In this document: one piece after another, positions 3,121 through 28,125 of the stretch
Layout: the number at the start of each line of letters is the position of its first letter
How positions within the stretch are numbered: position 1 is the stretch's first letter
NCBI GenBank assembly: GCA_934555895.1
Contig: CAKTFH010000021.1
Span: forward strand, 1 to 40,422
Origin: an uncultured Muribaculaceae bacterium
Lineage (GTDB): Bacteria > Bacteroidota > Bacteroidia > Bacteroidales > Muribaculaceae
DNA: 40,422 nucleotides
Direction: 5' to 3'
Translations under genes and position numbers: made by a program
The notes under the pieces: model-generated
Told to the model about the DNA's origin: nothing
Databases searched by the model: none
Seen by the model: only the letters and a program-made list of their open reading frames with translations

Positions 3121-3255
3121 CTTATATGCGTTTGTGATGATTTCTATTTAGAGTACGCCTGTCGTCTCCGTTTGTGACAGGCTGCAAAGAAAATAATTTA
3201 GACATGTCTGTAATTTTCCGGACTTTCAGGGCGAGGCTTATGACGATGGGCACCA

Positions 3256-3263
3256 TACCTTTG
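3256..3263 (+). promoter_or_regulatory. -7 box upstream of the 823-aa orphan gene
   Basis: TACCTTTG fits TAnnTTTG exactly. It lies 28 bp upstream of the ATG at 3292, giving a leader of roughly 20 nt. No convincing TTTG is seen at the -33 position, so the promoter may be weak or activator-dependent. Confidence 0.4.
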
Positions 3264-3291
3264 CGGCCGAAACATTCAAAAAATTTTGGAT

Positions 3292-5763
3292 ATGGAAGGT
3301 AAGTGCAGTAAAAGACAGAGAGAGGAGAGAAGAGGCGGCAGCGTAGCTTTCGGAGCGGTGGAGGCGACAGCACTCACGGGTGGACGCTTCATGACAGGCA
3401 CGAACGTGCGGCGCCACGAGGTGGAGCGGGATGTGTGGGTCAGCGCCGGGATGCCGGCCGCGGTGAGGGCCGACGGGTGGCTGCCGTGGGGTGTGACGGT
3501 GCTGAGGGGTACCTCTGGCAAGCAGGCAGTATGGTTTGTGCGCGGTAACTCCATGGCGGTGAGTGTGACCGAAGCGGGAGCCGAGGTGAACCCCGCCGCC
3601 ATCGTTACGGCGTTGGGAACGCTCAACGGCGCTCCGGTGGCTGTGGAGGTGGTAGAAGAGGGTACACTGCGCATAGCGGTGGAGGGCGCACGGGCGGTGT
3701 ATGCCACCTACACCCGTCAGGGAGCCGTGACGCTTCACGGCGAGATGCCGCAGTTGCCGCAACTGCGCCTCGAGGCCACTCCCGGGAGGGCTGTGACGGT
3801 GGCTGTGGGGCGTGTGGCGCTGTCGGGCGACAGCGATGCAATGGGAGCCACGCTTGCCGATGCCGATGTGCAGAAGGTGACGGCTGCGCTCATGGCTGCC
3901 TATGGACGCCTGAAGTCGCTTGTGGCGGGCATGGGCGGCTTCATGCAGCCGGTGGTGGCACGCTGGCGTCTGCTCGACGGCAGGGGGAGCACGGTAGCGA
4001 TGGGCGCTCCGGTGCTGCTTGGCCAGAAAGAGGGGGTGCAATGTTCGGGCGAGGTGACGATGCCCGCCGAGGGGAGCGACCTCGGGGCGCTCGCCGCCGG
4101 GTCGCTGTCGGGTAGGAGTTTCAGCATCAGTCTGGGAGGCATGCGGGCCATCCCCGCTCCGTGGAGCCGCATAGTGCGCAGGGCGGTGGTGGAGATAAGC
4201 GACGCCATCGACCCCGTGGCCGCTGAATCGCAGGCCCTGTGCCGTGTGGTCAACGACGGTCACGGCCCCACGGTGTATGCGCGGCTGCCGATTGCCGGCG
4301 AGGCGATGCTCCGGAGCAAAGTCACAGCGGCACTTATGGGCGAAGGGTTCAGGGTGCATGCTGTTGTTGACGAGCCTTTCGGCGAAAATGCTTCTACGGA
4401 AGTATCGGTGGGGAACCGCCCGCTGTGGACAGACCCCCGTGCGCCGCGACTGCCGTGGAGCCATCTGCACCGCGATGCCGTGAGCTACACCATGATGACC
4501 CGGGCCGGAGAGCGTGCGGTGGCTGCAGGCCGCAGCGAGGAGGTGTTTGCCGGCTACGGCGTGCAGGATTATGCCACAGCGACATCTGAGGGTGCGTGGA
4601 GGGCGCAGGCCGAGATGCTGCTGGTGTATCCCGACGGCTCGGAACGGCGCAGGGTGAGTGTGTCGTCGGGCACCGGACATGCGCCGCAACTCGTCTCGGG
4701 ACTAATTGTGGTGCCCGATGTGAACGCACGCCGGCTGCGTCTCACTGTCTCGACAGGCGGCAAGATACTCACCGCCATCTACGACCTGCAGCCCGTGCCT
4801 GAGGCCGCATGCGCCTGCTGTCTGCAGCCGGGACTAAAGGGAACATTTCCCGACAAGGAGCTCGCTGCGATGCCAGCCGTGGACGACTGGGAGGAGCAAG
4901 GTATGCGCCGCACCGAGCCGGGATATGTGGGGATATTCGACAGCGATGCCCTGGCGGTGGAACTCGCCCGAACCTCGATGCCCGGCAAGGTGGTATATGC
5001 CGGCATGATGCCACGCAACAACGGCGCGTGGGATTTCTCGCGGCTGCGTCTGCTGCTCATGGGCGCGTTCGGCACCTACCGTGCCACAGTCGACGCGCAG
5101 GGAGCGTTCCACAGCATGGCTCCAATGGACCTCCGGCCGGTGCTCTCGCGGCATGCCGTGTGCGAGGCTCCCGGCGATAAGGGCCTCACTCTCTATGCTG
5201 TGGCCGGAGGCGACCTTGTGGAGGCCGGGAGCGGTGCAGTGACCACTTTGCTGCCGCATTGCGGAGCAGTGACGGCGGGATGGTGCGGGCGCTACGGAGA
5301 GCTGTGGCTCGCCGGTGCCAAAGGGCGCATGAGGCGGCTGGCGCCCTCACATCCGCAGGAGATTGTAGATGTAAGGCTGCCAGGACTTAGCGGCGGCGTG
5401 CAGTTCAGTCAAAGCGGTGCTGGGCTGCTCATGGCCGCCGGTGACTCCGGCCTCATACTCGACCCTTCGGAGGAGAGCGATGCCGCGCTGCCTGTGGCGC
5501 TGAGGCTGCGCTACCGCAATCCGTGGCCCGGGGGAGATGCCCGACGGCTGCATACTCTGGTTGTGCCGGTTACGGCAGCCTCGTTCGCCGGTACCATCGC
5601 TCTCTACGGCGACTGTGGCACGACCGTGCCATGCGAACTGTGCACAATCAGGATCGACGGCGCCGTCAATGCACCGGTGCCGCTCACCCCGCTGGCTCCG
5701 TGGCGCCCGTGGCTCGAGTTATGCATCACGGCCGATGCCGCATGTTCATTCATTTGCCGTTAA
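3292..5763 (+). CDS. Large GC-rich protein of unknown function (823 aa)
   Basis: I do not recognise this family. The protein has no signal peptide and no membrane helix. It is rich in Ala, Gly, Arg and Val, looks mostly beta (many alternating short hydrophobic stretches), and has a Cys cluster A-C-A-C-C near residue 506. The C-terminal third (about 620-720) has short repeats of the type 'GELWLAGAKGRMRRL', 'LYAVAGGDLVEA' and 'LLMAAGDSGLIL', which suggest propeller-like blades. The tone resembles large structural proteins of Bacteroidota prophages, but no diagnostic motif proves it. It is an isolated cistron with its own -7 box and terminator, and is noticeably more GC-rich than its neighbours. 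The ATG at 3292 was preferred to a TTG six bases upstream. Confidence 0.8.
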   Translation: MEGKCSKRQREERRGGSVAFGAVEATALTGGRFMTGTNVRRHEVERDVWVSAGMPAAVRADGWLPWGVTVLRGTSGKQAVWFVRGNSMAVSVTEAGAEVNPAAIVTALGTLNGAPVAVEVVEEGTLRIAVEGARAVYATYTRQGAVTLHGEMPQLPQLRLEATPGRAVTVAVGRVALSGDSDAMGATLADADVQKVTAALMAAYGRLKSLVAGMGGFMQPVVARWRLLDGRGSTVAMGAPVLLGQKEGVQCSGEVTMPAEGSDLGALAAGSLSGRSFSISLGGMRAIPAPWSRIVRRAVVEISDAIDPVAAESQALCRVVNDGHGPTVYARLPIAGEAMLRSKVTAALMGEGFRVHAVVDEPFGENASTEVSVGNRPLWTDPRAPRLPWSHLHRDAVSYTMMTRAGERAVAAGRSEEVFAGYGVQDYATATSEGAWRAQAEMLLVYPDGSERRRVSVSSGTGHAPQLVSGLIVVPDVNARRLRLTVSTGGKILTAIYDLQPVPEAACACCLQPGLKGTFPDKELAAMPAVDDWEEQGMRRTEPGYVGIFDSDALAVELARTSMPGKVVYAGMMPRNNGAWDFSRLRLLLMGAFGTYRATVDAQGAFHSMAPMDLRPVLSRHAVCEAPGDKGLTLYAVAGGDLVEAGSGAVTTLLPHCGAVTAGWCGRYGELWLAGAKGRMRRLAPSHPQEIVDVRLPGLSGGVQFSQSGAGLLMAAGDSGLILDPSEESDAALPVALRLRYRNPWPGGDARRLHTLVVPVTAASFAGTIALYGDCGTTVPCELCTIRIDGAVNAPVPLTPLAPWRPWLELCITADAACSFICR

Positions 5764-5869: not shown

Positions 5870-7660
5870 ATGTCAATCGACCAGATTATTGCTCAGGGTG
5901 TGGCCAAGGCCGTGAAAGCACTCTACGGGGTGGACACTCCGGCCGACAAAATAGCGCCGCAAACCACTCGCAAGGAGTTTGAAGGCAATCTTACCGTGGT
6001 GGTTTTCCCATGGGTGAAGGCCGCCCATAAATCGCCTGAGCAGGTGGGAACCGAAATCGGCGACTGGCTGGTGGAGAACGAGCCCGCAGTCGACCGTTTC
6101 AATGTGGTGAAGGGATTTCTCAACATCGTCATCGAGCCCACCTTCTGGTGCTCGGTGCTCGAGCATATCGAGTCGACCCCCTCGTTCGGCATCGAGGCTG
6201 CCACCGAGACATCGCCGCTGGTGATGGTGGAATACAGCTCGCCCAACACCAACAAACCCCTGCACCTGGGCCACGTGCGCAACAACCTGCTGGGCTATTC
6301 GCTGGCCGAGATACTTAAGGCATGCGGCAACCGTGTGGTGAAGACCAACATAGTGAACGACCGCGGCATCCACATCTGCAAGTCGATGCTCGCATGGCAG
6401 AAATGGGGCGACGGCGCCACTCCGGAGAATACCGGCAAGAAAGGCGACCACCTCATTGGTGACTTCTATGTGCTCTTCGACAAGCACTACCGCGCCGAGG
6501 TGAAGGAGCTTATGGAGACCAAGGGGCTCAGCGAGGACGACGCCAAGGCTCAGAGTCCCCTCATGGCCGAGGCCCGCGCCATGCTGCGCAAATGGGAGGA
6601 AAAAGACCCCGAGGTGCGCAAACTCTGGGAGATGATGAACTCGTGGGTGTATGCCGGTTTCGACGAGACATACCGCCGTCTGGGCGTGGATTTCGATAAA
6701 ATCTACTATGAGAGCCAGACCTACCTCGAGGGTAAGGAAAAAGTGCTCGAAGGGCTCGAGAAGGGCATAATGACCCGCGACGCCGACGGTTCGGTGTGGG
6801 CCGACCTCACCGACGCGGGCCTCGACCGCAAGCTGCTGCTGCGCTCCGACGGCACATCGGTGTACATGACCCAGGACATAGGCACCGCCAAGCTCCGCTT
6901 CCAGGATTTCCCCATCGACAAGATGATTTACGTGGTGGGCAACGAGCAGAACTACCACTTCCAGGTGCTCTCTATACTTCTCGACCGCCTCGGCTTCAAG
7001 TGGGGCAAAGATCTCGTGCACTTCTCCTACGGCATGGTGGAGCTCCCCGAAGGCAAGATGAAGAGCCGCGAGGGCACGGTGGTCGACGCCGACGACCTCA
7101 TGGAGGAGATGGTGAGCTCGGCACGCGAGGTGTCGCGCGAGCTCGGCAAGCTCGACGGCCTCACCGAGGCCGAGACCGAAGAAATTTCGGAAGTCGTGGG
7201 CCTCGGGGCGCTGAAATATTTCCTGCTCAAGGTCGACCCCCGCAAGAACATGCTCTTCAACCCCAAGGAGAGCATCGACTTCAACGGCAACACCGGTCCC
7301 TTCATCCAGTACACCTACGCCCGCATCCGCTCGGTGCTCCGCAAGGCACAGGAGCAGGCGCTCACCGTGGCTCCCTATAGTGCCGTGCAGCCCAACGAGA
7401 AGGAGATTGCACTCATACAGACTCTGGCCGACTTCCCCGCCACAGTGCAGGAGGCTGGACGCAGCTATTCGCCCGCCGTCATCGCCAACTATGTGTATGA
7501 ACTCGTGAAGCAGTTCAACCAGTTCTACCACGATTATTCCATCCTCAAGGAGGAGGATGTGGCAGTGCGCTCGCTGCGCCTGGCGCTGTGCGACGCCACA
7601 TCGCGCGTGGTGGCCACCGGCATGGGTCTCCTCGGCATCCGCGTGCCCGAGAGAATGTAA
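5870..7660 (+). CDS. argS: Arginyl-tRNA synthetase
   Basis: A 596-aa class I aminoacyl-tRNA synthetase that charges tRNA(Arg) with arginine in the cytoplasm. Visible features are the N-terminal Arg-tRNA-synthetase additional domain (about 1-90), the HIGH-type motif HLGH at residues 132-135 in the context S-P-N-T-N-K-P-L-H-L-G-H, and the KMSKS-equivalent G-K-M-K-S-R-E-G-T at about 395-403. The C-terminal DALR anticodon-binding domain ends with the typical V-x-x-x-G-M-x-x-L-G-I-R-V-P-E-R-M. Length and motifs are normal for the family. It appears to be monocistronic with its own promoter; the next gene follows after 69 bp without a clear terminator. Confidence 0.98.
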   Translation: MSIDQIIAQGVAKAVKALYGVDTPADKIAPQTTRKEFEGNLTVVVFPWVKAAHKSPEQVGTEIGDWLVENEPAVDRFNVVKGFLNIVIEPTFWCSVLEHIESTPSFGIEAATETSPLVMVEYSSPNTNKPLHLGHVRNNLLGYSLAEILKACGNRVVKTNIVNDRGIHICKSMLAWQKWGDGATPENTGKKGDHLIGDFYVLFDKHYRAEVKELMETKGLSEDDAKAQSPLMAEARAMLRKWEEKDPEVRKLWEMMNSWVYAGFDETYRRLGVDFDKIYYESQTYLEGKEKVLEGLEKGIMTRDADGSVWADLTDAGLDRKLLLRSDGTSVYMTQDIGTAKLRFQDFPIDKMIYVVGNEQNYHFQVLSILLDRLGFKWGKDLVHFSYGMVELPEGKMKSREGTVVDADDLMEEMVSSAREVSRELGKLDGLTEAETEEISEVVGLGALKYFLLKVDPRKNMLFNPKESIDFNGNTGPFIQYTYARIRSVLRKAQEQALTVAPYSAVQPNEKEIALIQTLADFPATVQEAGRSYSPAVIANYVYELVKQFNQFYHDYSILKEEDVAVRSLRLALCDATSRVVATGMGLLGIRVPERM

Positions 7661-7729: not shown

Positions 7730-8467
7730 ATGAACAACTACAACAACAACCCCTGGGGAGGCAACAATTCCTGGGGCAACGACTCGATTGCTTTGGAAAA
7801 CAAAGTGTCGGCAGTGATGAAAAGCGTGTACCTGAAGATGTTTCTCGGGCTGCTCGTCACCGCTCTCACCGCATGGCTGGTGGCCTCTACCGCTACCTCC
7901 GACCAGAGCCTGCTCTATCAGATAGCCGCCAATTCGTGGATTTATTGGGGACTCGCCATCGTTGAGATTGGCCTGGTGCTGTGGATTTCGGCCCGTCTGC
8001 AGAAGATGAGTTCGGGCATGGCCACAGGCCTGTTTTTCCTCTTCGCGGTGGTCAACGGCCTCACGCTGTCGCTCATATTTGTGGTCTACACCATGTCGTC
8101 GATAGCCAAGACCTTCTTCATCACCGCCGGAGTGTTTGGCGCGATGAGCGTCTACGGCTATTTCACCACACGCTCGCTCGCCAAGATAGGCTCCTATCTC
8201 TACATGGCCCTCTTCGGTCTGCTTATCCTGATGGTGGTGAACATCTTCACCCATAGCTCCACCCTCGACTGGATTGTGAGCTGCGTAGGAGTGCTCCTTT
8301 TTATCGGCCTCACCGCCTGGGACACCCAGCAGATACGCCAGATGGCCGAGATGAATCCCTCGATGGCCGACGGCCGCCTCGCCACCCTCGGCGCCCTGAC
8401 GCTCTACCTCGACTTCATCAACCTCTTCATCTACCTCCTCCGCTTCTTCGGCAACAGCAATGATTGA
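7730..8467 (+). CDS. Bax inhibitor-1 / YccA family membrane protein
   Basis: A 245-aa inner-membrane protein with about seven transmembrane helices after an Asn/Gly-rich cytoplasmic N-terminus (residues 1-20). It has the UPF0005/BI-1 pattern: a first helix near 40-58, a hinge segment T-F-F-I-T-A-G-V-F-G-A-M-S around residue 125, and the signature stretch F-I-G-L-T-A-W-D-T-Q-Q-I near 195, followed by the Y-L-D-F-I-N-L-F helix. Bacterial members are calcium-leak channels or partners of the FtsH protease; which applies here is unknown. It lies 69 bp after argS in the same direction with no strong promoter visible, so read-through from argS is possible. Confidence 0.93.
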   Translation: MNNYNNNPWGGNNSWGNDSIALENKVSAVMKSVYLKMFLGLLVTALTAWLVASTATSDQSLLYQIAANSWIYWGLAIVEIGLVLWISARLQKMSSGMATGLFFLFAVVNGLTLSLIFVVYTMSSIAKTFFITAGVFGAMSVYGYFTTRSLAKIGSYLYMALFGLLILMVVNIFTHSSTLDWIVSCVGVLLFIGLTAWDTQQIRQMAEMNPSMADGRLATLGALTLYLDFINLFIYLLRFFGNSND

Positions 8468-8702: not shown

Positions 8703-8744
8703 ATCGGCGGCATGTCAAATCCAGAAATTTGATGTGCCGCCGAT
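8703..8744. repeat. Large hairpin, copy 1 of a two-copy element
   Basis: An 18-bp stem (8703-8720 with 8727-8744) encloses a 6-nt loop CCAGAA. The only imperfections are two adjacent positions that form G-U wobbles in RNA. Nearly the same sequence occurs at 11072-11107 with loop CCGGAA. There is no T-run after this copy, so it is not a simple terminator. Confidence 0.85.
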
Positions 8745-8753
8745 GTTATATAT

Positions 8754-8845: not shown

Positions 8846-8877
8846 TTTGAAATATGAATTAAAAAAGAGTATATTTG
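8846..8877 (+). promoter_or_regulatory. Promoter of the C10 protease gene
   Basis: TTTG (8846-8849), a 20-bp spacer and TATATTTG (8870-8877) form an essentially perfect Bacteroidota promoter. It predicts a short leader of about 25 nt before the GTG at 8908. Strong expression of the island is expected unless repressed. Confidence 0.75.
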
Positions 8878-8907
8878 CCGCACCTCCTTAAATCAATTCA
8901 TTTTATC

Positions 8908-10215
8908 GTGAAAATCAGAAACTTATTGTTCGCTGCGGCAACTCTGCTGCTTGGCAGCTGCTCCACCGAGGAGCCGCTACAGGCGTCAAGTGACAATCCT
9001 GTTGCCGGCTATGGCGATGCCAGATTGAGGACCCCCGAGGAAATACTTGGGCTTGCTTCTGATGCGATAAATATCCTTTCGCCTCAGGGAGGCGGTGAAA
9101 ATCTTGGCCGTGGATTGGGAAGGTCTGTTGATTACAAGTCGCAACTGATTCCGATTGGAGCTACAAAATCACGTTCCGGAGTGAGCGAGCCGCTGATGTA
9201 TGCGGTCAATTACACCGACGACAATGGATATGCTCTAATTTCCGCTCACCGTAATGCGCCTGATGTTCTTGCGGTAACTGAACGGGGAAATTTCGATGCG
9301 CAGGAAACATCTCAAATCGAAGGTCTGCAATTATGGCTGGATGATATGATGCAGTATCTGGAAGAGGCCGCCTCTGTTGAATCTCCATATGATGCACTCT
9401 CTTCCGAAACTTTGGTTAAAACGGTTGTAGATACGATCTGGATGAAGAATGTAGCTCCGAGAGTAAAAGTCTTGTGGGGACAGAGGGATGATAAAACATA
9501 TCCAGGTGCCTGCGAAGGAGCTTATGCTCCAAATGGTATAGCCGGGTGTAGCCCCGTAGCGATAGGCATGGTGATGTCATATCTGGAAATGCCTGCACAA
9601 CTTAATCTAACATGGCGTAAAGATGGTTCAAAAATTCAACTTAAATGGAATGAATTGAAAAAATATCTTTCGACGGATGATAATCCACCTAAAATAAATC
9701 CAGAACCTTCTGAACAGAATAAAAATTACAACATAAGGGGAAATATATCTCAGCTATTAAGAGAAATAGGGCATAGAGAAAATGCCGACTACCATTCAGA
9801 AGGCACAGCTGTTTCGAGCTCGAAAACATTTGAAGTCGTGAGAAATTTATCATTGACATCCAGCAATGGTTGGGAAAAAGGAGCAGGTCTGCAAGCATAT
9901 GAAATGATGTTCTATAACAGTGATGGAATTCTTATAATGAGAGGCGAGGATCCTAATATGACGGCTGGTCATCAGTGGATTTGTGATGGTGTTCAATCAT
10001 TTTCGGTTCATCGAAGTGTTTATGAAAGTGAAGACGATGGTAAAAATTGGGACCTTATAATAGAACATTCAGAGTCTGAATCATGTATGATTCATCAAAA
10101 TTGGGGATGGCATGGGAATGGTAATGGGTATTATCTATACAATGTCACGACTCCATATGTGGCAGATAGTATAGATTTTACAAATTCAAGGGAAATTCTA
10201 AGAATTCTTAGATGA
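8908..10215 (+). CDS. Lipoprotein C10-family (streptopain-like) cysteine protease
   Basis: A 435-aa secreted papain-fold protease of MEROPS family C10, like SpeB of Streptococcus and Bfp proteases of Bacteroides. A lipoprotein signal (residues 1-18, lipobox L-L-G-S-C, Cys18) suggests outer-membrane anchoring. A Spi-type propeptide spans about 85-160 with the segment Y-A-L-I-S-A-H-R-N-A-P-D-V-L-A. Catalytic Cys214 lies in G-C-S-P-V-A-I-G-M-V-M-S-Y and catalytic His355 in A-G-H-Q-W-I-C-D-G. The conserved N398-W-G-W401 near the end is followed by G-N-G-Y-Y. All key residues are present, so it should be active after propeptide removal. GTG at 8908 is taken as start because it opens the signal peptide; a TTG at 8875 sits inside the promoter's -7 box. 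Its stop overlaps the next gene by 4 bp. The gene is AT-richer than the flanking core, which fits transfer. Confidence 0.9.
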   Translation: MKIRNLLFAAATLLLGSCSTEEPLQASSDNPVAGYGDARLRTPEEILGLASDAINILSPQGGGENLGRGLGRSVDYKSQLIPIGATKSRSGVSEPLMYAVNYTDDNGYALISAHRNAPDVLAVTERGNFDAQETSQIEGLQLWLDDMMQYLEEAASVESPYDALSSETLVKTVVDTIWMKNVAPRVKVLWGQRDDKTYPGACEGAYAPNGIAGCSPVAIGMVMSYLEMPAQLNLTWRKDGSKIQLKWNELKKYLSTDDNPPKINPEPSEQNKNYNIRGNISQLLREIGHRENADYHSEGTAVSSSKTFEVVRNLSLTSSNGWEKGAGLQAYEMMFYNSDGILIMRGEDPNMTAGHQWICDGVQSFSVHRSVYESEDDGKNWDLIIEHSESESCMIHQNWGWHGNGNGYYLYNVTTPYVADSIDFTNSREILRILR

Positions 10216-11054
10216 AAAATTTATGTGTCATACTACCATTTGCGATTTTCTTTAGTTTAAGTAGTAATGCTTCAAAGGTATTATTGCAAGATGAAAGCGT
10301 GATATCAAACGCCATGTTGTCAAATGACGGTAATTCCAAAGACGGTTCGGAAGTAATAAAAGACAGCGGCTCCTTTACAAATGCCAAATCGGACCATCTT
10401 TTCAAATATACCGACCCCAACATCAATGTTTCGGCCGACGGGACCACTTTGGTGCTTCCCTATGAGCCGGTGAATGCGATATCTTTTCATTACTTGATTT
10501 GTAAGGACATGCTCGCAACTTACGGTGACTATGCTGTCCAGTATACATACGATAATGAATGGTACCTTTATGGAATAAATAAACTGGCCTTTTATGAAAT
10601 TCTATGTAAAGAAGTCCTTACAAAGCTTGGATATGATGTGGGTTATCCGACGAAATGTTCAGATTGGAGAAACAATGAAATCAGGGGTATAAAGAAGAAG
10701 CTTCATTATTATTTCAAGCCTGTGAGAAATCTGGCTTGCTTTTCTCCGTATGATGTTGCGGGTGTGAATCTTTCTAACCCAATTGAGGTAAAAAATTTTG
10801 TTATGGATAATATACGTTGTGTCGATCGTGGCATTGGTATTCAAGAAAATACTACATCTATTGAGATAAAGGCCGGGAGAGACGACTGGGTAATAGCCAC
10901 TATTGACCGGAAGAAATATATCTTGACATTTCAGATAAAACCCAATAAGACGGGTAAAACTCGGTGCTTCACATTCGTAATGGGTGGCGTATATCATATT
11001 CCGCCTTCTTCGTTTATAGACAACGGTGTGATAGTGCATCAGGCTGCCCGCTGA
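10212..11054 (+). CDS. Exported protein of unknown family, paralog A, coupled to the C10 protease
   Basis: A 280-aa protein with a Sec signal peptide (hydrophobic 4-16, likely cleavage after S-S-N-A near 20). The mature part has six cysteines and shares about two thirds of its residues with paralog B (11154-11984). I do not recognise the family. The first strand-like segment (I-N-V-S-A-D-G-T-T-L-V-L-P-Y) and the C-terminal end (D-W-x-x-A-T-I-D-R-K, N-K-T-G-K-x-R-C, G-V-I-V-H-Q) resemble the first and last strands of BACON-type beta-sandwich domains, with about 130 extra residues between. It starts inside the protease stop codon (ATGA), so the two are made together. By analogy with C10 protease/inhibitor pairs in Bacteroides and streptococci it could be an inhibitor, chaperone or substrate; that is inference. 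Confidence 0.85.
   Translation: MKNLCVILPFAIFFSLSSNASKVLLQDESVISNAMLSNDGNSKDGSEVIKDSGSFTNAKSDHLFKYTDPNINVSADGTTLVLPYEPVNAISFHYLICKDMLATYGDYAVQYTYDNEWYLYGINKLAFYEILCKEVLTKLGYDVGYPTKCSDWRNNEIRGIKKKLHYYFKPVRNLACFSPYDVAGVNLSNPIEVKNFVMDNIRCVDRGIGIQENTTSIEIKAGRDDWVIATIDRKKYILTFQIKPNKTGKTRCFTFVMGGVYHIPPSSFIDNGVIVHQAAR
10355..10472 (+). repeat. 118-bp perfectly repeated segment, copy in paralog A
   Basis: Identical base for base with 11285-11402, exactly 930 bp away. It encodes the start of the mature domain (from D-S-G-S-F-T-N-A-K through to L-P-Y-E-P-V). Flanking sequence in the two genes has diverged at many silent and coding positions, so the block looks like recent gene conversion. Confidence 0.95.
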
Positions 11055-11071
11055 ACTGACGGTATAAAATA

Positions 11072-11107
11072 GGCGGCATGTCAAATCCGGAAATTTGATG
11101 TGCCGCC
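11072..11107. repeat. Large hairpin, copy 2, between the paralogs
   Basis: A 15-bp stem (11072-11086 with 11093-11107) encloses loop CCGGAA. It is the same element as 8703-8744 with one loop change and shorter base pairing at the foot. Here the downstream arm is followed by GATGTTTTTC, so it may act as a partial terminator that lowers expression of paralog B relative to the protease and paralog A. No promoter box is visible between this hairpin and the next ATG. Confidence 0.85.
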
Positions 11108-11153
11108 GATGTTTTTCTCCTCAGTGTAAATCATCAAATAACATGATACGCTT

Positions 11154-11984
11154 ATGAAGGCAGGAATCCTGTTGCCTTTCGCTTTGGCGCTGCTGTTGCC
11201 CGGAAACGGCGCGGCAAAGGAGTTGTCGCAAGGTGTGTCACCTGATTGTGCGGTGTCACATGAAGTCAAAGATGGTTCGGAAGAAATAAAAGACAGCGGC
11301 TCCTTTACAAATGCCAAATCGGACCATCTTTTCAAATATACCGACCCCAACATCAATGTTTCGGCCGACGGGACCACTTTGGTGCTTCCCTATGAGCCGG
11401 TGGATGTAATAATGTTTCACTATCTGATTTGCAAGGATATGCTTGCAACTTACGGTGACTACGCTGTAAGGTACAGATATGATGACGAGTGGTATCATTA
11501 TGGAATAAATAAAAGGATGTTTTTCACGCTGCTTTGTAAGGATGTTCTCACACAGTTGGGATATGATGTGAAATCTCATACTGACCGTTTCGACTGGAGA
11601 AACAATGAGACCAGAGGTATAAAGAAGAAACTCCATTATTATTTCGAGCCTATTACCAATCTGGCTTGTTTCTCGCCGGGTGATGTTGTGGGAGTGGATA
11701 TATCCAAGGAAGTGGTGGTGAAAAATTATATTATGGACAATGTGCGGTGTGCCGATTACCTTATTGGTCTTCGGAGCAAAACTACCTCTCTGGAGATGAA
11801 GGCCGGGAAGGACGACTGGGTAACGGCCACTATTGACCGGAAGGTATATACTGTGGCATTTCAGATAAAACCCAATAAGACGGGTAAGCCGCGCTGTTTC
11901 ACTTTCGCTATGGGCGGGTACTACCATACCCCTCCCTCTTCGTTTCTCGACAACGGTGTGATAGTGCATCAGGCAGCCCGTTGA
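11154..11984 (+). CDS. Exported protein of unknown family, paralog B
   Basis: A 276-aa tandem paralog of the preceding gene. It has its own signal peptide (hydrophobic 4-15, cleavage near G-N-G-A-A-K) with different sequence, five cysteines in the mature part, the same lysine-rich centre (R-G-I-K-K-K-L-H-Y-Y-F) and the same C-terminal BACON-like ending (N-G-V-I-V-H-Q-A-A-R). Paralog A's T-K-C-S-D cysteine is replaced by T-D-R-F-D. The gene follows the hairpin at 11072-11107 by 46 bp and has no separate promoter box, so it is probably read from the protease promoter through or past that hairpin. A terminator follows. Function is unknown; the pair may bind two targets or two forms of the neighbouring protease. 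Confidence 0.85.
   Translation: MKAGILLPFALALLLPGNGAAKELSQGVSPDCAVSHEVKDGSEEIKDSGSFTNAKSDHLFKYTDPNINVSADGTTLVLPYEPVDVIMFHYLICKDMLATYGDYAVRYRYDDEWYHYGINKRMFFTLLCKDVLTQLGYDVKSHTDRFDWRNNETRGIKKKLHYYFEPITNLACFSPGDVVGVDISKEVVVKNYIMDNVRCADYLIGLRSKTTSLEMKAGKDDWVTATIDRKVYTVAFQIKPNKTGKPRCFTFAMGGYYHTPPSSFLDNGVIVHQAAR
11285..11402 (+). repeat. 118-bp perfectly repeated segment, copy in paralog B
   Basis: Second copy of the block at 10355-10472, without a mismatch. It ends at the codon after P-V, where the two genes diverge at once (AATGCG versus GATGTA). Confidence 0.95.
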
Positions 11985-12012
11985 ACTGACAAGAAATAAA
12001 TGAAATAACATA

Positions 12013-12058
12013 CGCGATGGCATCGCCGGAATGGGCATGCCATCGCGTTTGTTGTTTT
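12013..12058 (+). terminator. Terminator of the protease island
   Basis: A perfect 10-bp stem CGCGATGGCA/TGCCATCGCG (12013-12022 with 12038-12047) is followed by TTTGTTGTTTT. It closes the rightward island before the convergent GH109 gene. Confidence 0.8.
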
Positions 12059-12085: not shown

Positions 12086-13717
12086 TCAGCGGTTGACTTC
12101 AGTGGCACGGTCGGCGGCGGTGCGGGCCTTGCGGTAGGCTTTGGCGGCACGGGCGCGCTCGCGGGGAGTGGAGGCGTGGCACCAGGCGTCGTAGAGGGGC
12201 CAGAGCTGATGGGCGGCGGTGGCTTTGCGGCGGGCGGTGGTGTAGGCGCGTGCGGCGGCTTCGGAGGCTGCCTCCTCAGCGGCGGGTGCATATGCGTGGG
12301 AGTAACCTTGGCGGTCGGTCCAGTGGCCGCGGGTGAAGTCGGGGAACTCCACTGGAGCGCTGTTGTGATCCATCGATAAGGCTCCGAGCTCGCCTAGCGA
12401 GCACCATTCGGCCAGATCGTAGACATCCATGTCGAGGGGCAAGCCGTTGCGCAGGCAGTAGACGAGGCGTGAATCCATCATGAAGTCCATGCCTCCGTGG
12501 CCCATCTCCCGACCGAGCTCGCCGTAGCGGGTGATGATGGGGTGGCGGTAGCGGGCCACGAGCGAGTCGTATTCGGCCTGCGGGAGGAATGTGTGGTAGC
12601 TGATGTCGGCCGACACCGGCTCAACTCCGGCGGCACGCAGCTGCTCGGCGCTGAGCGAGATTTTTTCTTCGGGATATTTGGTAGCGTAGCCCTTGGTGCC
12701 GGTGAGTTTGAAAAGGCGGTTGTAAGGCTGCGGATTCATCACGTTGTGTTGTATCTCCACCACTTTGCCGTTGGCGGTGCGCATGAGGGTGGTGGTGTGG
12801 TCGCCGTTTCTGAACTTAGCAGCAGGCTTACCGGTGATGCCGCTCACATACTCCGGGCCGTGCACCGGCTTGGTGTCCATGGCCACGAGGGTGGTGAATC
12901 GGTCGCCGCGGTGTATGTCCATGCACTGTGCCACGGGGCCGAGGCCGTGGGTGGCGTAGAGGTCGCCTCGGTTCTCCATGTTGTATTTCATGCGCCATCC
13001 GAGGCCGTCGGGGTCGGCGGCGGTGTTTTTCCAGTATTCATTCCAGTAGGGGTCGAGGTCGTGGATGTAGGCGCCTTCGGCGCGCAGGATTTCGCCGAAC
13101 ACTCCGGCCTGCTTCATGGCCATGGCGTTGAGCTCGTAGTAGTCGTAGCAGCAGTTCTCCAGTATCATGCAGTGGAGGCGTGTGCGCTCGGCCAGGTCGA
13201 TGAGCGCCCAGCATTGCGAGAGGTTCATGGCCGACGGCACCTCCACGGCGGTGTGCTTGCCGTGGGTGAGGGCCTCATATGCCACGGGGAAGTGGTGCTC
13301 CCAGTCGGTGGCCACATATACGATGTCGATATCGGGGCGTGCGCATAGCTCCTTGTAGCCGGATGGGCCGAAGTAGATGTCGGCCGGCGGCAGTCCGGCC
13401 TGACGCAGAATCTCCTGCGGGGCTGCGGCATGCACCGAGTCGTGGTCGCACAGCGCCACGATTTCCACTCCGGGGATGTGTGCCCAGCGGTTCACGGCTC
13501 CGGGGCCTCGCATGCCGAGCCCTACGAAGCCTACGCGTACCACGGGGAGCGGCTTGGCCGCCATGCCCACGGCATGCTGCTGCGAAGGTGCACGCACGGG
13601 TGTTTCGGTAACTATGGTGCCCTGTTCGAAATGCCAGGGTGTGGAGAGCGACTGTGCCCGTGCTCCGAAAATGACGGCCGATACGCACAGAAGCGTTGCT
13701 ATAAGCTGGGTTCTCAT
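12086..13717 (-). CDS. Exported Gfo/Idh/MocA-type glycosidase, GH109 family
   Basis: A 543-aa secreted NAD-dependent hydrolase. It has a signal peptide (1-22, cleavage after A-R-A), a Rossmann motif V-R-V-G-F-V-G-L-G-M-R-G (about 60-71) and the catalytic-region sequence E-G-A-Y-I-H (Tyr217, His219). The conserved GHGGMDF (about 404-410) precedes R-L-V-Y-C-L-R-N-G-L-P-L-D-M-D-V-Y, which is characteristic of GH109. GH109 enzymes cleave alpha-N-acetylgalactosaminides by an NAD-assisted mechanism, often on mucin or blood-group glycans, in the periplasm. The substrate here is inferred. After the usual family end (about residue 475) there is an extra tail of roughly 65 Ala/Arg/Lys-rich residues, probably helical. 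Start at 13717 was chosen for the signal peptide. Confidence 0.9.
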   Translation of the reverse strand: MRTQLIATLLCVSAVIFGARAQSLSTPWHFEQGTIVTETPVRAPSQQHAVGMAAKPLPVVRVGFVGLGMRGPGAVNRWAHIPGVEIVALCDHDSVHAAAPQEILRQAGLPPADIYFGPSGYKELCARPDIDIVYVATDWEHHFPVAYEALTHGKHTAVEVPSAMNLSQCWALIDLAERTRLHCMILENCCYDYYELNAMAMKQAGVFGEILRAEGAYIHDLDPYWNEYWKNTAADPDGLGWRMKYNMENRGDLYATHGLGPVAQCMDIHRGDRFTTLVAMDTKPVHGPEYVSGITGKPAAKFRNGDHTTTLMRTANGKVVEIQHNVMNPQPYNRLFKLTGTKGYATKYPEEKISLSAEQLRAAGVEPVSADISYHTFLPQAEYDSLVARYRHPIITRYGELGREMGHGGMDFMMDSRLVYCLRNGLPLDMDVYDLAEWCSLGELGALSMDHNSAPVEFPDFTRGHWTDRQGYSHAYAPAAEEAASEAAARAYTTARRKATAAHQLWPLYDAWCHASTPRERARAAKAYRKARTAADRATEVNR

Positions 13718-13756
13718 GGTGTGAATGATTGGAATATAAAAGCCAGTTGTGTGGAT

Positions 13757-13800
13757 AAAAAACAAGCGGGGCCGGAGCCACACAGCGGCTTCGGCCCCGC
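13757..13800 (-). terminator. Terminator of the pyruvate oxidoreductase gene
   Basis: Read leftward, a 13-bp GC-rich stem (13800-13788 with 13778-13766, one G-U pair) is followed by TTGTTTTTT. It lies 17 bp past the stop of the PFOR gene. Confidence 0.85.
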
Positions 13801-13817: not shown

Positions 13818-16800
13818 TTAGTCTTTGACTTCAGCTTCTGCGGGAGCTATGCCCCACTGGCACTGGGCCAGGCGGCGGTAGTTGTTGTAGCGCCACTGGG
13901 CGTTGGCTTTTGCTGCTGCGAAGAGCTCGGCTGCCTCGGCGGGATACTGCTTGAGCACCGATGCATAGCGCACCTCACCCTTGAGGAACTCCTCGAAGGC
14001 ATCCCAGTCGGGTTCCTTGCTGTCGAGAGTGAAGGGGTTCTTGCCCTCGTTCTCGAGCGCGGGGTTGTAGCGCCAGAGCTGCCAGTAGCCGCAAGCCACG
14101 GCACGCTCTTCCTCTTTCTGCGAGTGACCCATACCGGCCTTGAGGCCGTGGTTGATACAGGGAGCGTAGGCTATGATGATCGAAGGACCGTCATAAGCCT
14201 CGGCCTCGCGGATAGCCTTGAGGGTCTGTGCGTTGTCGGCGCCCATGGCAACCTGTGCGGCGTAAACGTAGCCGTAGGTGGTGGCGATGAGGCCGAGGTC
14301 TTTCTTGCGCACGCGCTTGCCTGCGGCGGCGAACTTGGCGATGGCGCCGATAGGTGTGGCCTTCGATGCCTGGCCGCCGGTGTTGGAGTAAACCTCGGTG
14401 TCGACAACGAGCACATTCACGTTCTTACCCGAAGCGAGCACGTGGTCGAGACCGCCGAAGCCTATGTCGTAGGCGGCGCCGTCGCCGGCGATGATCCACT
14501 GCGAACGTTTCACGATGAAGTTTTTCAGAGCCACGATGCCTTTGCAGATGTCGCACGAGCAAGCTTCGCAGAGGGGCACGATGGTTTCGAAAACTTCGCG
14601 GGTGGCGGTGGCGTCGGCGCGGTTGTCGAGCCACTTCTGAGCCTGTGCCTTGATTTCATCCGAGCAGCAGTCGCACTTGGTGGCCTGCTCCATGAGGGCT
14701 GCGAGGCGCAGCTGCATCTTCTCGTTGGCGATGGTCATGCCGAGACCGAACTCGGCGAAGTCCTCGAAGAGCGAGTTGGCCCATGCGGGGCCGTGACCGC
14801 GGAAGTTGGTGGTATAGGGTGTCGAGGGCACCGAACCCGAGTAGATCGAGGAGCAGCCTGTGGCGTTGGCCACCATCTCGTGGTCGCCGAAGAGCTGCGA
14901 GATAAGTTTCACGTAGGGAGTCTCGCCGCAGCCCGAGCATGCGCCTGAGAACTCGAAGAGCGGTGTGGCGAACTGGCTGTTCTTCACGTTGGCGGCCACA
15001 TCCACGAGGTCCTGCTTCGAGGCCACGCTGGCCACGCAGTAGTCCCACTCTTTCTGCACATTGAGCTGAGTCTCGAGAGGCTTCATTTCGAGAGCCTTCA
15101 CGCCCTTCTTGCCGGGGCATACATCCACGCAGTTGCCGCAGCCGAGGCAGTCGAGCACATCGACCGACTGGATGAAGCGCATGCCGGCGAACTGCTTGCC
15201 GAGTGCGGGTATGGTGTCGCCTTCTGCGAAAGGAGCGGCCTTCATCTCGTCGGCGTCGAGCACGAACGGACGGATGGCAGCGTGAGGGCAGACATATGCG
15301 CACTTGTTGCACTGGATACAGTTTTCTTCAAGCCACTGGGGCACGAAGGCTGCCACACCACGCTTTTCGTAGGCTGCGGTGCCGTTCTCCCATGTGCCGT
15401 CGGGACGGTCGATGAAGTCGCTGACCTTGAGGAGGTCGCCGTCCTGAGCGTTGATGGGGCGCACAATCTTGTTGATGAATTCGGGAGCGTCGTCGGCTGT
15501 GGTGTCCTCTATGGTGAGTGACGACCATGCGGGGTCGACATCAAGCTGCTTGTATTCGCCTCCGCGGTCTACGGCGGCGTAGTTCTTGTCGACTACATCC
15601 TGACCCTTCTTGCCGTAGCTCTTGACGATGAATTTTTTCATCTGCTCCACGGCGAGGTCCACGGGGATAACCTCGGTGATGCGGAAGAATGCGCTCTGGA
15701 GGATGGTGTTGGTGCGGTTGCCCAGACCGATTTCCTGAGCTATCTTGGTGGCGTTGATGTAATATACGGTGATGTTGTGGTCGGCGAAATATTTCTTCAC
15801 CTTGTTGGGAAGGTTCTTGGCAAGCTCCTCGCCCTCCCAGATGGTGTTGAGCAGGAAGGTGCCGTTGTCGCGCAGGCCGCGGGTGACATCATACATGTGG
15901 AGGTAAGCCTGCACATGGCATGCCACGAAGTTGGGGGTGTTCACCAGATAGGTGGAGCGGATGGGCGCGTCGCCGAAGCGGAGGTGCGAGCATGTGAAGC
16001 CGCCCGATTTCTTCGAGTCGTAGGCGAAATATGCCTGGCAGTATTTGCTGGTGTTGTCGCCGATGATCTTGATGGAGTTCTTGTTGGCTCCCACGGTGCC
16101 GTCGGCGCCGAGGCCGTAGAACTTGGCCTCATATGTGCTCTTGTCGCCGAGGGCCACCTCTTCGGGCAGGGGCAGCGATGTGAATGTCACATCGTCGACG
16201 ATGCCTACTGTGAAGTGGTCTTTGGGCATTGGGAGAGCGAGATTCTCGAACACGCCGATGATCTGCGCGGGTGTGGTGTCTTTCGAGGCCAGACCGTAGC
16301 GGCCGCCCACGATGAGGGGAGCGTTCTCCTTGCCGTAGAAGCACTCCTTGACATCGAGCAGCAGGGGCTCGCCGTTGGCGCCGGGCTCCTTGGTGCGGTC
16401 GAGCACAGCGATGCGCTTGCAGGTTGCGGGCACGGCTGCGAGGAAATGCTTGGCCGAGAAGGGACGGTAGAGGTGCACGGCCACGAGGCCCACCTTCTCG
16501 CCTTTCTCTACGAGTGCGTCGATGGCCTCCTGGGCTGCCTGTGTGACGGAGCCCATGGCGATAATCACACGCTCTGCGTCGGGAGCGCCGTAGTAGTTGA
16601 ACAGACCGTATTTGCGGCCGGTGATTTCCGAAATCTTGTTCATGTATTCCTCCACAACTTCGGGCACTGCGTCGTAGGCCTTGTTGCAGGCCTCGCGGTG
16701 CTGGAAGAATACATCGCCGTTCTCGGCCATGCCGCGGCTCACGGGAGCCTGGGGCGAAAGGCCGCGCTGGCGGAAGCGGGCCAGAGCCTCGCGGTCGAGC

Positions 16801-17387
16801 AGGGGAGCGATCTCCTCCTGGTCGATAGCCTCGATTTTCTGAATCTCATGCGATGTGCGGAAGCCGTCGAAGAAGTTCACGAAGGGAACCGACGACTTGA
16901 TGGAAGCCAGATGAGCCACACCGGCGAGGTCCATAACCTCCTGCACAGAGCCTTCGCAGAGCATTGCGAAACCTGTCTGGCGCACCGACATCACATCCTG
17001 ATGGTCGCCGAAGATGCTTAGCGCGTGGGAGGCAAGTGTGCGTGCCGAAACATGGAAAACGCAGGGGAGTTGCTCGCCTGCGATTTTGTACATGTTGGGT
17101 ATCATCAGAAGCAGACCCTGCGATGCGGTATAGGTGGTGGTGAGGGCACCTGCCTGCAGCGAGCCGTGAACGGCGCCGGCGGCGCCACCCTCGCTCTGCA
17201 TCTCCTGCACGAGCACGGTCTCGCCGAAAATGTTCTTGCGCCCTGCAGCGGCCCACTCGTCAACGTATTCGGCCATTGTGGACGACGGTGTGATGGGGTA
17301 AATAGCCGCCACCTCGCTGAACATATACGAGATGTGTGCGGCGGCCTGGTTACCGTCACATGTCAGAAATTTTTTTTCTTTGCTCAT
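13818..17387 (-). CDS. nifJ: Pyruvate:ferredoxin (flavodoxin) oxidoreductase
   Basis: A 1189-aa single-chain enzyme of anaerobic metabolism: pyruvate + CoA + oxidised ferredoxin to acetyl-CoA + CO2 + reduced ferredoxin, in the cytoplasm. Domain order is normal. The pyruvate-binding N-terminal domain has Y-P-I-T-P-S-S-T-M-A near residues 32-41. A gamma/EKR region follows, then two 4Fe-4S clusters, C-I-Q-C-N-K-C-A-Y-V-C-P at about 690 and C-L-G-C-G-N-C-V-D-V-C-P at about 745. The TPP domain has G-A-C-S-G-C-G-E-T at about 812 and the G-D-G-A-A-Y-D-I-G-F-G-G-L-D-H segment near 965. Further Cys pairs lie at about 905-950. The ATG at 17387 is the family start. A minus-strand TAACTTCG (17483-17476, one mismatch to TAnnTTTG) may be its promoter, giving a leader of about 85 nt. 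It is divergent from phoH. Confidence 0.97.
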   Translation of the reverse strand: MSKEKKFLTCDGNQAAAHISYMFSEVAAIYPITPSSTMAEYVDEWAAAGRKNIFGETVLVQEMQSEGGAAGAVHGSLQAGALTTTYTASQGLLLMIPNMYKIAGEQLPCVFHVSARTLASHALSIFGDHQDVMSVRQTGFAMLCEGSVQEVMDLAGVAHLASIKSSVPFVNFFDGFRTSHEIQKIEAIDQEEIAPLLDREALARFRQRGLSPQAPVSRGMAENGDVFFQHREACNKAYDAVPEVVEEYMNKISEITGRKYGLFNYYGAPDAERVIIAMGSVTQAAQEAIDALVEKGEKVGLVAVHLYRPFSAKHFLAAVPATCKRIAVLDRTKEPGANGEPLLLDVKECFYGKENAPLIVGGRYGLASKDTTPAQIIGVFENLALPMPKDHFTVGIVDDVTFTSLPLPEEVALGDKSTYEAKFYGLGADGTVGANKNSIKIIGDNTSKYCQAYFAYDSKKSGGFTCSHLRFGDAPIRSTYLVNTPNFVACHVQAYLHMYDVTRGLRDNGTFLLNTIWEGEELAKNLPNKVKKYFADHNITVYYINATKIAQEIGLGNRTNTILQSAFFRITEVIPVDLAVEQMKKFIVKSYGKKGQDVVDKNYAAVDRGGEYKQLDVDPAWSSLTIEDTTADDAPEFINKIVRPINAQDGDLLKVSDFIDRPDGTWENGTAAYEKRGVAAFVPQWLEENCIQCNKCAYVCPHAAIRPFVLDADEMKAAPFAEGDTIPALGKQFAGMRFIQSVDVLDCLGCGNCVDVCPGKKGVKALEMKPLETQLNVQKEWDYCVASVASKQDLVDVAANVKNSQFATPLFEFSGACSGCGETPYVKLISQLFGDHEMVANATGCSSIYSGSVPSTPYTTNFRGHGPAWANSLFEDFAEFGLGMTIANEKMQLRLAALMEQATKCDCCSDEIKAQAQKWLDNRADATATREVFETIVPLCEACSCDICKGIVALKNFIVKRSQWIIAGDGAAYDIGFGGLDHVLASGKNVNVLVVDTEVYSNTGGQASKATPIGAIAKFAAAGKRVRKKDLGLIATTYGYVYAAQVAMGADNAQTLKAIREAEAYDGPSIIIAYAPCINHGLKAGMGHSQKEEERAVACGYWQLWRYNPALENEGKNPFTLDSKEPDWDAFEEFLKGEVRYASVLKQYPAEAAELFAAAKANAQWRYNNYRRLAQCQWGIAPAEAEVKD

Positions 17388-17620
17388 AACTATGAATTTA
17401 TGTTTTAGTTTCTGATTCAGCGTAAGCCTGAGCGATATGTCGCGGCGCCACAGGAGCGCACACATATCCAATTCGCGAAGTTACTCATTTTTTTGCGCAT
17501 AAATCTCGTTTTTCCGCTGAAATTTTCGCTACCCGCCCCGCTTTAAGTCTATTTAGTGAAGCGGAACCTTCGTTCACACACAAGCGTTATATAAATAGAA
17601 TATATCTTGAGAAAATTTGC

Positions 17621-26504: not shown

Positions 26505-26562
26505 AAAAAGCAGCGGCGGCACGCATTGCGGAATGAAATTGTTCCGCAGTGCGTGCCGCCGC
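26505..26562 (-). terminator. Strong terminator of the GH125 gene
   Basis: A 21-bp stem (26562-26542 with 26533-26513, a single mismatched or wobble pair) with an 8-nt loop is read leftward and followed by TGCTTTTT. It lies 24 bp past the GH125 stop. Confidence 0.9.
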
Positions 26563-26586
26563 AGTGTGTGGTATGCTTTCAGGCGA

Positions 26587-28050: not shown

Positions 28051-28125
28051 GCGAAGTGTGGCGATGATCGGTTATGATGTTTGTGTTTATTATGCGAAAT
28101 AAGGAAATATCCGCATCTGTGTGTG

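What the first reader, a model, noticed from the sequence alone, without database searches (positions are those of the whole stretch)
8846..12058. Secreted C10 protease coupled to two tandem, unrecognised exported proteins
A lipoprotein C10 protease with all catalytic residues (Cys214, His355, Asn398-Trp) overlaps by 4 bp a signal-peptide protein, and a paralog follows. Established: C10 proteases of Bacteroides and streptococci are often encoded with small dedicated inhibitors. Seen: these partners are about 255 residues mature, far larger than such inhibitors, cysteine-containing and of no family I recognise. Inferred: they could be inhibitors, maturation chaperones, or toxin-like effectors whose release depends on the protease. 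The AT-rich composition marks the unit as an accessory island.
Basis: partly seen in the sequence, partly recalled or inferred. Interest (0 to 1): 0.72.

Follow-up and report, generated by a model that had tools for sequence, protein, structure and literature searches.

The report
Mosaic C10 protease with rare partners
A bacterium, probably one of the Bacteroidales, carries an exported cysteine protease coupled to two related exported proteins of a very rare, unnamed family that most likely restrain or steer the protease; both protease and partners look patched together by recombination.

Summary
A C10 protease (8908-10215; lipobox, I69-type propeptide, intact Cys214/His355/Asn398-Trp399) overlaps partner A (10212-11054) by 4 bp; paralogue B (11154-11984) follows 99 bp on, behind a strong hairpin. 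The partners pass no family threshold. Two searches of 5.8 billion proteins gave 7 relatives in all; 3 of these 7 share an exact longest-contig length with a protease relative (5910, 2430, 190748 bases), so linkage persists where partners are only about 40% identical. Five of 9 members, but neither window partner, match the BACON domain weakly (best E 0.006, below cut-off); low-confidence models show an Ig-like sandwich split by a variable insert. Best reading: dedicated inhibitor or immunity proteins, in the manner of Bfi/Bti inhibitors and potempins but larger and of another family; inhibition is inferred. Added here: the protease clade has a near-constant propeptide (94-99% identical) before a diverged catalytic domain (54-80%, one near-copy pair aside), and four other C10 pairs show similar breaks. 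A and B share an exact 118-bp tract, and near-copies elsewhere share other changes in it. This suggests recombination and concerted evolution of the cassette.

The parts
8703..8747 (+). hairpin, first copy of a 45-bp element (96% identical to 11069-11113), upstream of the protease
   Evidence: 2 matches, 0 expected in shuffles; z -7.0
8846..8877 (+). Bacteroides-type promoter match TTTG-N20-TATATTTG (consensus recalled)
   Evidence: 3 matches in the window, 0.35 expected; this is the only one near the unit
8908..10215 (+). C10 cysteine protease, lipoprotein zymogen, 435 aa from GTG
8908..9351 (+). codons 1-148 of the protease: near-constant leader plus propeptide module, GC 0.505
9478..10212 (+). 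codons 191-435: diverged catalytic domain, GC 0.382
10212..11054 (+). partner A, 280 aa, signal-like N-terminus, 4-bp overlap with the protease
10355..10472 (+). 118-bp tract identical to 11285-11402 in partner B
11069..11113 (+). second copy of the hairpin, followed in the scan by GATGTTTTTC, terminator-like, between A and B
   Evidence: z -5.4
11154..11984 (+). partner B, 276 aa, signal-like N-terminus, paralogue of A
11285..11402 (+). 118-bp tract identical to 10355-10472 in partner A
12013..12047 (+). hairpin followed by a T-rich stretch, likely terminator of the unit
   Evidence: z -8.0

Best explanation
The unit is a protease plus dedicated-partner cassette. The C10 enzyme is exported as a lipid-anchored zymogen; cutting away its propeptide would free the active protease (inferred from the C10 pattern). 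Partner A, whose gene overlaps that of the protease, and its duplicate B are probably exported soluble proteins; short relatives are lipoproteins. They are probably built on an Ig/BACON-like sandwich split by a long variable insert, and most likely bind the protease and keep it from acting on the producer's own envelope (inhibitor or immunity function). Recombination has kept the leader and propeptide of the protease, and part of the partners, uniform while the catalytic domain and the partner insert diverge. Shown: anatomy, linkage in 3 of 7 relatives, mosaic pattern in sequence. Inferred: export route, fold, binding, inhibition, recombination as cause and the reason for the diversity.
For: 4-bp overlap. 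Linkage to C10 genes in 3 of 7 homolog clusters by exact contig length (after 2% jitter of the protease lengths 0 of 20,000 draws gave 3 matches, 1 gave 2, 269 gave 1). The 2430-base contig holds a 430-aa protease and a 250-aa partner, so these must be neighbours. Signal-like N-termini on all three (by eye). Precedent: two inhibitor-like genes flanking one C10 protease (bfi1A-bfp1-bfi1B; PMC2873492, section 6 and passages). Where the three intact linked pairs can be compared, partner and catalytic domain diverge together, a weak point with only three comparisons: P0001/P0013 catalytic 0.72 with partners 0.56-0.59; P0001/P0015 0.54 with 0.42-0.44; P0013/P0015 0.56 with 0.41. Mosaic.
Against: No sequence relation to any known inhibitor family. 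The protease already has its own I69 propeptide. Structure models are poor (mean pLDDT 47 and 52). B has no recognised promoter and lies behind a terminator-like hairpin. BACON domains were proposed as glycan binders, not inhibitors.
Confidence: 0.45

Rival explanations
1. The partners are targeting subunits: BACON-like glycan or mucin-binding proteins that hold the released protease at its substrate.
For: Weak BACON match in 5 of 9 members (19.1-20.4 bits when three C-terminal pieces alone are scanned). BACON was predicted to bind mucin (passages of PMC9853417).
Against: All matches are below Pfam's cut-off of 25 bits, and the window's own A and B give none. The same passages report a BACON domain of BoGH5A that bound none of the substrates tested. 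The domain is interrupted by a long insert and is not fused to the protease.
Confidence: 0.2
2. The partners are folding or maturation factors, or preferred substrates, of the protease.
For: Gene overlap and linkage fit any dedicated partner.
Against: The protease carries its own I69 propeptide, and propeptides of such proteases serve folding and latency (PMC3462683 section 5). P0005 has the same longest-contig length as a truncated protease. Nothing points to a substrate role.
Confidence: 0.12
3. Interbacterial protease-toxin and immunity cassette: near-constant export and propeptide module, variable catalytic domain, downstream immunity genes in tandem.
For: Constant front part with diverged catalytic part in this clade and in four other C10 pairs; tandem partners; an intact partner whose longest contig matches that of a truncated protease; leader shared between P0010 (a partner) and the proteases.
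Against: No delivery module was seen and no toxin family matched; the catalytic domain is always C10 in the clade; all evidence is sequence only.
Confidence: 0.13
4. The partners are unrelated exported accessory proteins that merely ride in the same AT-rich cassette.
For: Low GC; few relatives found; 4 of 7 homolog clusters could not be tied to a C10 gene.
Against: 4-bp overlap, and linkage seen even for a partner only about 40% identical (P0007).
Confidence: 0.1

Closest known systems
Bfi/Bti staphostatin-like inhibitors beside Bacteroides C10 proteases (bfi1A-bfp1-bfi1B, btpA-btiA)
   Same: C10 lipoprotein protease with propeptide next to one or two partner genes predicted to be exported, some as lipoproteins, within 35 bp (PMC2873492, PMC3462683: abstracts, one named section each, passages)
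   Different: Bfi/Bti are 116-138 aa; these partners are 276-280 aa (247-255 aa in short relatives), possibly with a split BACON-like core; no solved chain of any kind matched the family profile by sequence
Potempins of Tannerella forsythia (lipoproteins paired with KLIKK proteases)
   Same: variable protease-partner pairs in a member of the Bacteroidales; inhibition of the paired protease is stated there as data to be published (passages of PMC7296668)
   Different: potempin genes precede their proteases and are called small lipoproteins; here the partners follow and are larger; sequences were not compared
Spi (I69) of streptococci
   Same: gene beside a C10 protease
   Different: Spi is a propeptide analogue; the partners give no I69 match up to E 10
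BACON domain (PF13004)
   Same: W...N.sG..R...Q pattern in the C-terminal half (pattern of BACON recalled; weak Pfam matches); predicted strands compatible with an Ig-like sandwich
   Different: below the curated cut-off; interrupted by a long insert; whole protein built around one domain

Membership tests
Peptidase C10 | C10 domain over curated cut-off | tested here: met
   70.5 bits against 26
Peptidase C10 | catalytic Cys, His and Asn-Trp | tested here: met
   C214, H355, N398, W399 aligned with relatives
Peptidase C10 | N-terminal propeptide of I69 type | tested here: met
   45.9 bits against 25
Peptidase C10 | proteolytic activity | not testable with these tools
   needs an assay
Bfi/Bti staphostatin-like inhibitors | small protein of 116-138 aa | tested here: not met
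   280 and 276 aa
Bfi/Bti staphostatin-like inhibitors | gene within 35 bp of the C10 gene: partner A | tested here: met
   4-bp overlap
Bfi/Bti staphostatin-like inhibitors | gene within 35 bp of the C10 gene: partner B | tested here: not met
   B starts 99 bp after A ends, behind a hairpin
Bfi/Bti staphostatin-like inhibitors | exported | tested here: inconclusive
   signal-like N-termini judged by eye only
Bfi/Bti staphostatin-like inhibitors | mainly beta fold of staphostatin type | tested here: inconclusive
   models of pLDDT 47 and 52; rows shown are immunoglobulin-type chains and 2mw1, none with Foldseek E below 0.001
Bfi/Bti staphostatin-like inhibitors | inhibits the neighbouring protease | not testable with these tools
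   needs an assay
Spi / Inhibitor_I69 | sequence relation to the C10 propeptide | tested here: not met
   no I69 match in any of 9 members up to E 10
BACON (PF13004) | score over curated cut-off of 25 bits | tested here: not met
   best 17.0 bits whole protein, 20.4 for a C-terminal piece; none for window A and B
BACON (PF13004) | Ig-like beta sandwich | tested here: inconclusive
Potempins | small lipoprotein encoded before its protease | tested here: not met
   partners follow the protease and lack a lipobox in this window; short relatives have one (by eye)

The most novel reading that the evidence does not exclude
A recombination-driven surface protease system: one near-constant leader-propeptide module is repeatedly joined to diverging C10 catalytic domains, while tandem BACON-like partners with homogenised flanks and a variable middle insert act as matched immunity or inhibitor proteins, as in polymorphic toxin and immunity cassettes, serving competition between related bacteria or adaptation to host targets.
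Probability: 0.15. Interest if true: 0.8.

Novelty: new variant of a known kind. Interest (0 to 1): 0.5.

Why it matters
Protease plus neighbouring inhibitor-like genes are known in Bacteroides, but this partner family matches no named family and is very rare. The constant-propeptide, diverged-catalytic mosaic, seen in this clade and in four other C10 pairs, suggests that these bacteria diversify secreted proteases by recombination. If so, it gives a natural series of catalytic domains behind one propeptide, in which substrate choice and partner matching can be tested directly.

Tried and rejected
No whole genome is held for the window, so neighbourhood surveys in related genomes could not be run, and the organism was not identified. 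No relative of the partners was found in genome contigs (26 and 73 pattern matches, none confirmed), viral contigs (50, none), phages or plasmids. No C10 relative in plasmids or phages or viral contigs (2, 29 and 29 pattern matches, none confirmed). The contig scans need short conserved words, so they do not prove absence. A search of one Bacteroides plasmid record with PF01640 found nothing, and nothing in the 14 control genomes either, so it tells nothing.

A toxin, phage or defence identity was looked for and not found: PHROGs (best E 0.035), NCBIfam (one match to a superantigen-like model in one member at E 0.053, not significant), PADLOC (none up to E 0.1). The viral structure library gave no match at E 0.001. 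PDB by sequence: none for A or the family profile up to E 10; the C-terminal profile gave only designed repeat proteins and titin at E 0.03 or worse. 2mw1 (Bacteroides thetaiotaomicron NP_809137.1) is a lead only: the accession is in no paper of the library, the string 2mw1 is in 9 papers, 8 listed, none about this protein by title and none opened, and it is not among the 60 of 185 chains shown for a BACON-like query.

Stronger purifying selection on the propeptide was considered as the cause of the mosaic. Against it: outside the clade 383 of 389 pairs do not have propeptide identity more than 0.15 above catalytic identity; the 6 that do are the four pairs named in the report and two low-identity pairs with P0038. 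Of 7 control pairs none shows a conserved front module ending near the propeptide: in P0017/P0018 and P0025/P0027 (each 2 of 2000 permutations) the first 40 residues are the more diverged part; P0019/P0020, P0020/P0021 and P0019/P0022 show no significant break; P0021/P0022 (47 of 2000) and P0030/P0031 (24 of 2000; 0.50 before, 0.67 after) break inside the catalytic domain. Selection is not excluded, since only proteins of the other copies were at hand. Rows left out of the pair counts: P0011 (near copy of P0001) and P0033 (no catalytic Cys). In the listings of 8 paper searches no account of this partner family or mosaic was seen (open-licence library only; four papers were opened in part: PMC2873492, PMC3462683, PMC9853417, PMC7296668).
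Full report
Anatomy. The unit lies at about 8846-12047 between a Bax1-I family membrane protein gene (7730-8467), with argS before it (5870-7660), and, on the other strand, a GH109-like oxidoreductase (12086-13783) and pyruvate:ferredoxin oxidoreductase (13818-17471). Its GC is 36-51% over most stretches against 60% and 63% in the two neighbouring genes measured. A Bacteroides-type promoter match (consensus recalled) lies at 8846-8877, which favours GTG 8908 over TTG 8875 as the protease start. The protease (435 aa) has a lipobox ending LGSC, an I69 propeptide and a C10 domain, the last two over Pfam cut-offs; Cys214, His355, Asn398 and Trp399 align with those of relatives. Partner A overlaps the protease stop by 4 bp. 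A 45-bp hairpin element (11069-11113; 96% identical to one at 8703-8747) separates A from partner B. A second strong hairpin with a T-rich tail closes the unit.

Linkage. Contig names are not shown, but the longest-contig lengths coincide exactly for P0005/P0016 (190748), P0006/P0013 (5910) and P0007/P0015 (2430): 3 of 7 partner clusters. Jittering the 30 protease lengths by 2% gave no draw with three matches in 20,000, one with two and 269 with one. The 2430-base contig leaves room only for direct neighbours. The other 4 clusters (P0004, P0008, P0009, P0010) matched no listed protease length; only the longest contig of each cluster is shown, so this is no evidence of separation.

Mosaic protease. 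In the clade P0001, P0012-P0016 the propeptide (residues 21-148) is 94-99% identical in all 15 pairs, while the catalytic domain is 54-80% identical in 14 of them (P0014/P0016, near copies, 99%); the five pairs with P0016 compare only 74 catalytic residues. The leader (1-20) is 85-90% identical to the window's. Of the 15 clade pairs 6 were tested for a break point: it lies at residues 131-192, with 0 of 2000 permutations reaching it in five and 1 in the sixth. In the window the same gene changes from GC 0.505 in the front module to 0.382 in the catalytic part. Among pairs outside the clade, P0019/P0021 (0.98 and 0.70), P0025/P0026 (0.95 and 0.72), P0020/P0022 (0.88 and 0.70) and P0037/P0039 (0.87 and 0.44) show the same kind of step, at positions 205, 123, 140 and 145 in the window protein's numbering (0 or 1 of 2000 permutations). 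So the break is not at one fixed place: some lie inside the propeptide, one inside the catalytic domain. Two more of the 6 pairs over 0.15 are low-identity pairs with P0038. Seven control pairs do not show a conserved front module (details under tried and rejected). Since 383 of 389 outside pairs do not have a markedly better kept propeptide, episodic recombination explains this better than constant selection. That is an inference from protein sequences; the DNA of the other copies was not available. Within the clade, positions within 5 residues of the three catalytic residues are more often invariant (21 of 33) than the rest of the domain (82 of 212), so activity is probably kept.

Mosaic partners. 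A and B share an exact 118-bp run where 145 of 717 aligned sites differ; the largest run in 10,000 shuffles was 56, and for third positions 44 against 29. Near-copies of B (P0004, 98%) and A (P0005, 97%) from other records share with each other S-for-T and S-for-P changes in this same tract, as expected if A and B are homogenised within a lineage; whether P0004 and P0005 come from one strain is not known. P0010, a partner, has nearly the same leader as the proteases (22 of 24 aligned residues identical to P0001, with one gap).

Function. In B. fragilis two of four, and in B. thetaiotaomicron three of four, C10 genes are transcriptionally coupled to inhibitor-like genes predicted to be exported; the authors note that maturation would free the protease from its lipid anchor and that a role of the inhibitors in protecting the cell has been mooted (PMC2873492 and PMC3462683: abstracts, one named section each, passages). 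Potempins in T. forsythia are described as lipoproteins that inhibit the paired protease, as data to be published there (PMC7296668 passages). By position and likely export, and weakly by co-divergence, the partners fit this role; by size and sequence they are not members of the Bfi/Bti or Spi families. Against a strict match: P0005 is nearly identical to A although a same-length contig holds a protease with a different catalytic part, ending at 265 aa (P0016). This may be a stranded partner after loss of the protease, or a sign that the partner does something else.

Verdict. Observation confirmed; interpretation partly supported. Known kind of arrangement, new partner family, and a mosaic pattern that deserves follow-up.

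Noticed in passing
window 8703-8747 and 11069-11113: A 45-bp hairpin element occurs twice in the window, once before the protease and once between the partners, 96% identical; a terminator, a repeat element or the scar of a duplication.
   Followed up: partly
P0016 (relative of the window protease), 265 aa: Truncated C10 protease lacking the His/Asn part of the catalytic domain; its longest contig has exactly the same length (190748) as that of an intact partner, P0005. A contig end was not excluded as the cause.
   Followed up: partly
P0037/P0039, P0019/P0021, P0025/P0026, P0020/P0022: Well-kept propeptide with diverged catalytic domain recurs in other C10 pairs.
   Followed up: partly
P0033: C10-like protein with T and Q in place of the catalytic Cys and His (compare the Cys-less BtpZ described in PMC3462683): a likely inactive homolog.
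   Followed up: no
window 3286-5763 (+) and 3238-4689 (-): Long overlapping ORFs on opposite strands in GC-rich DNA, neither with a Pfam match at E 0.001.
   Followed up: no
window 26533-28077 (+): 514-aa ORF without a Pfam match at E 0.001.
   Followed up: no
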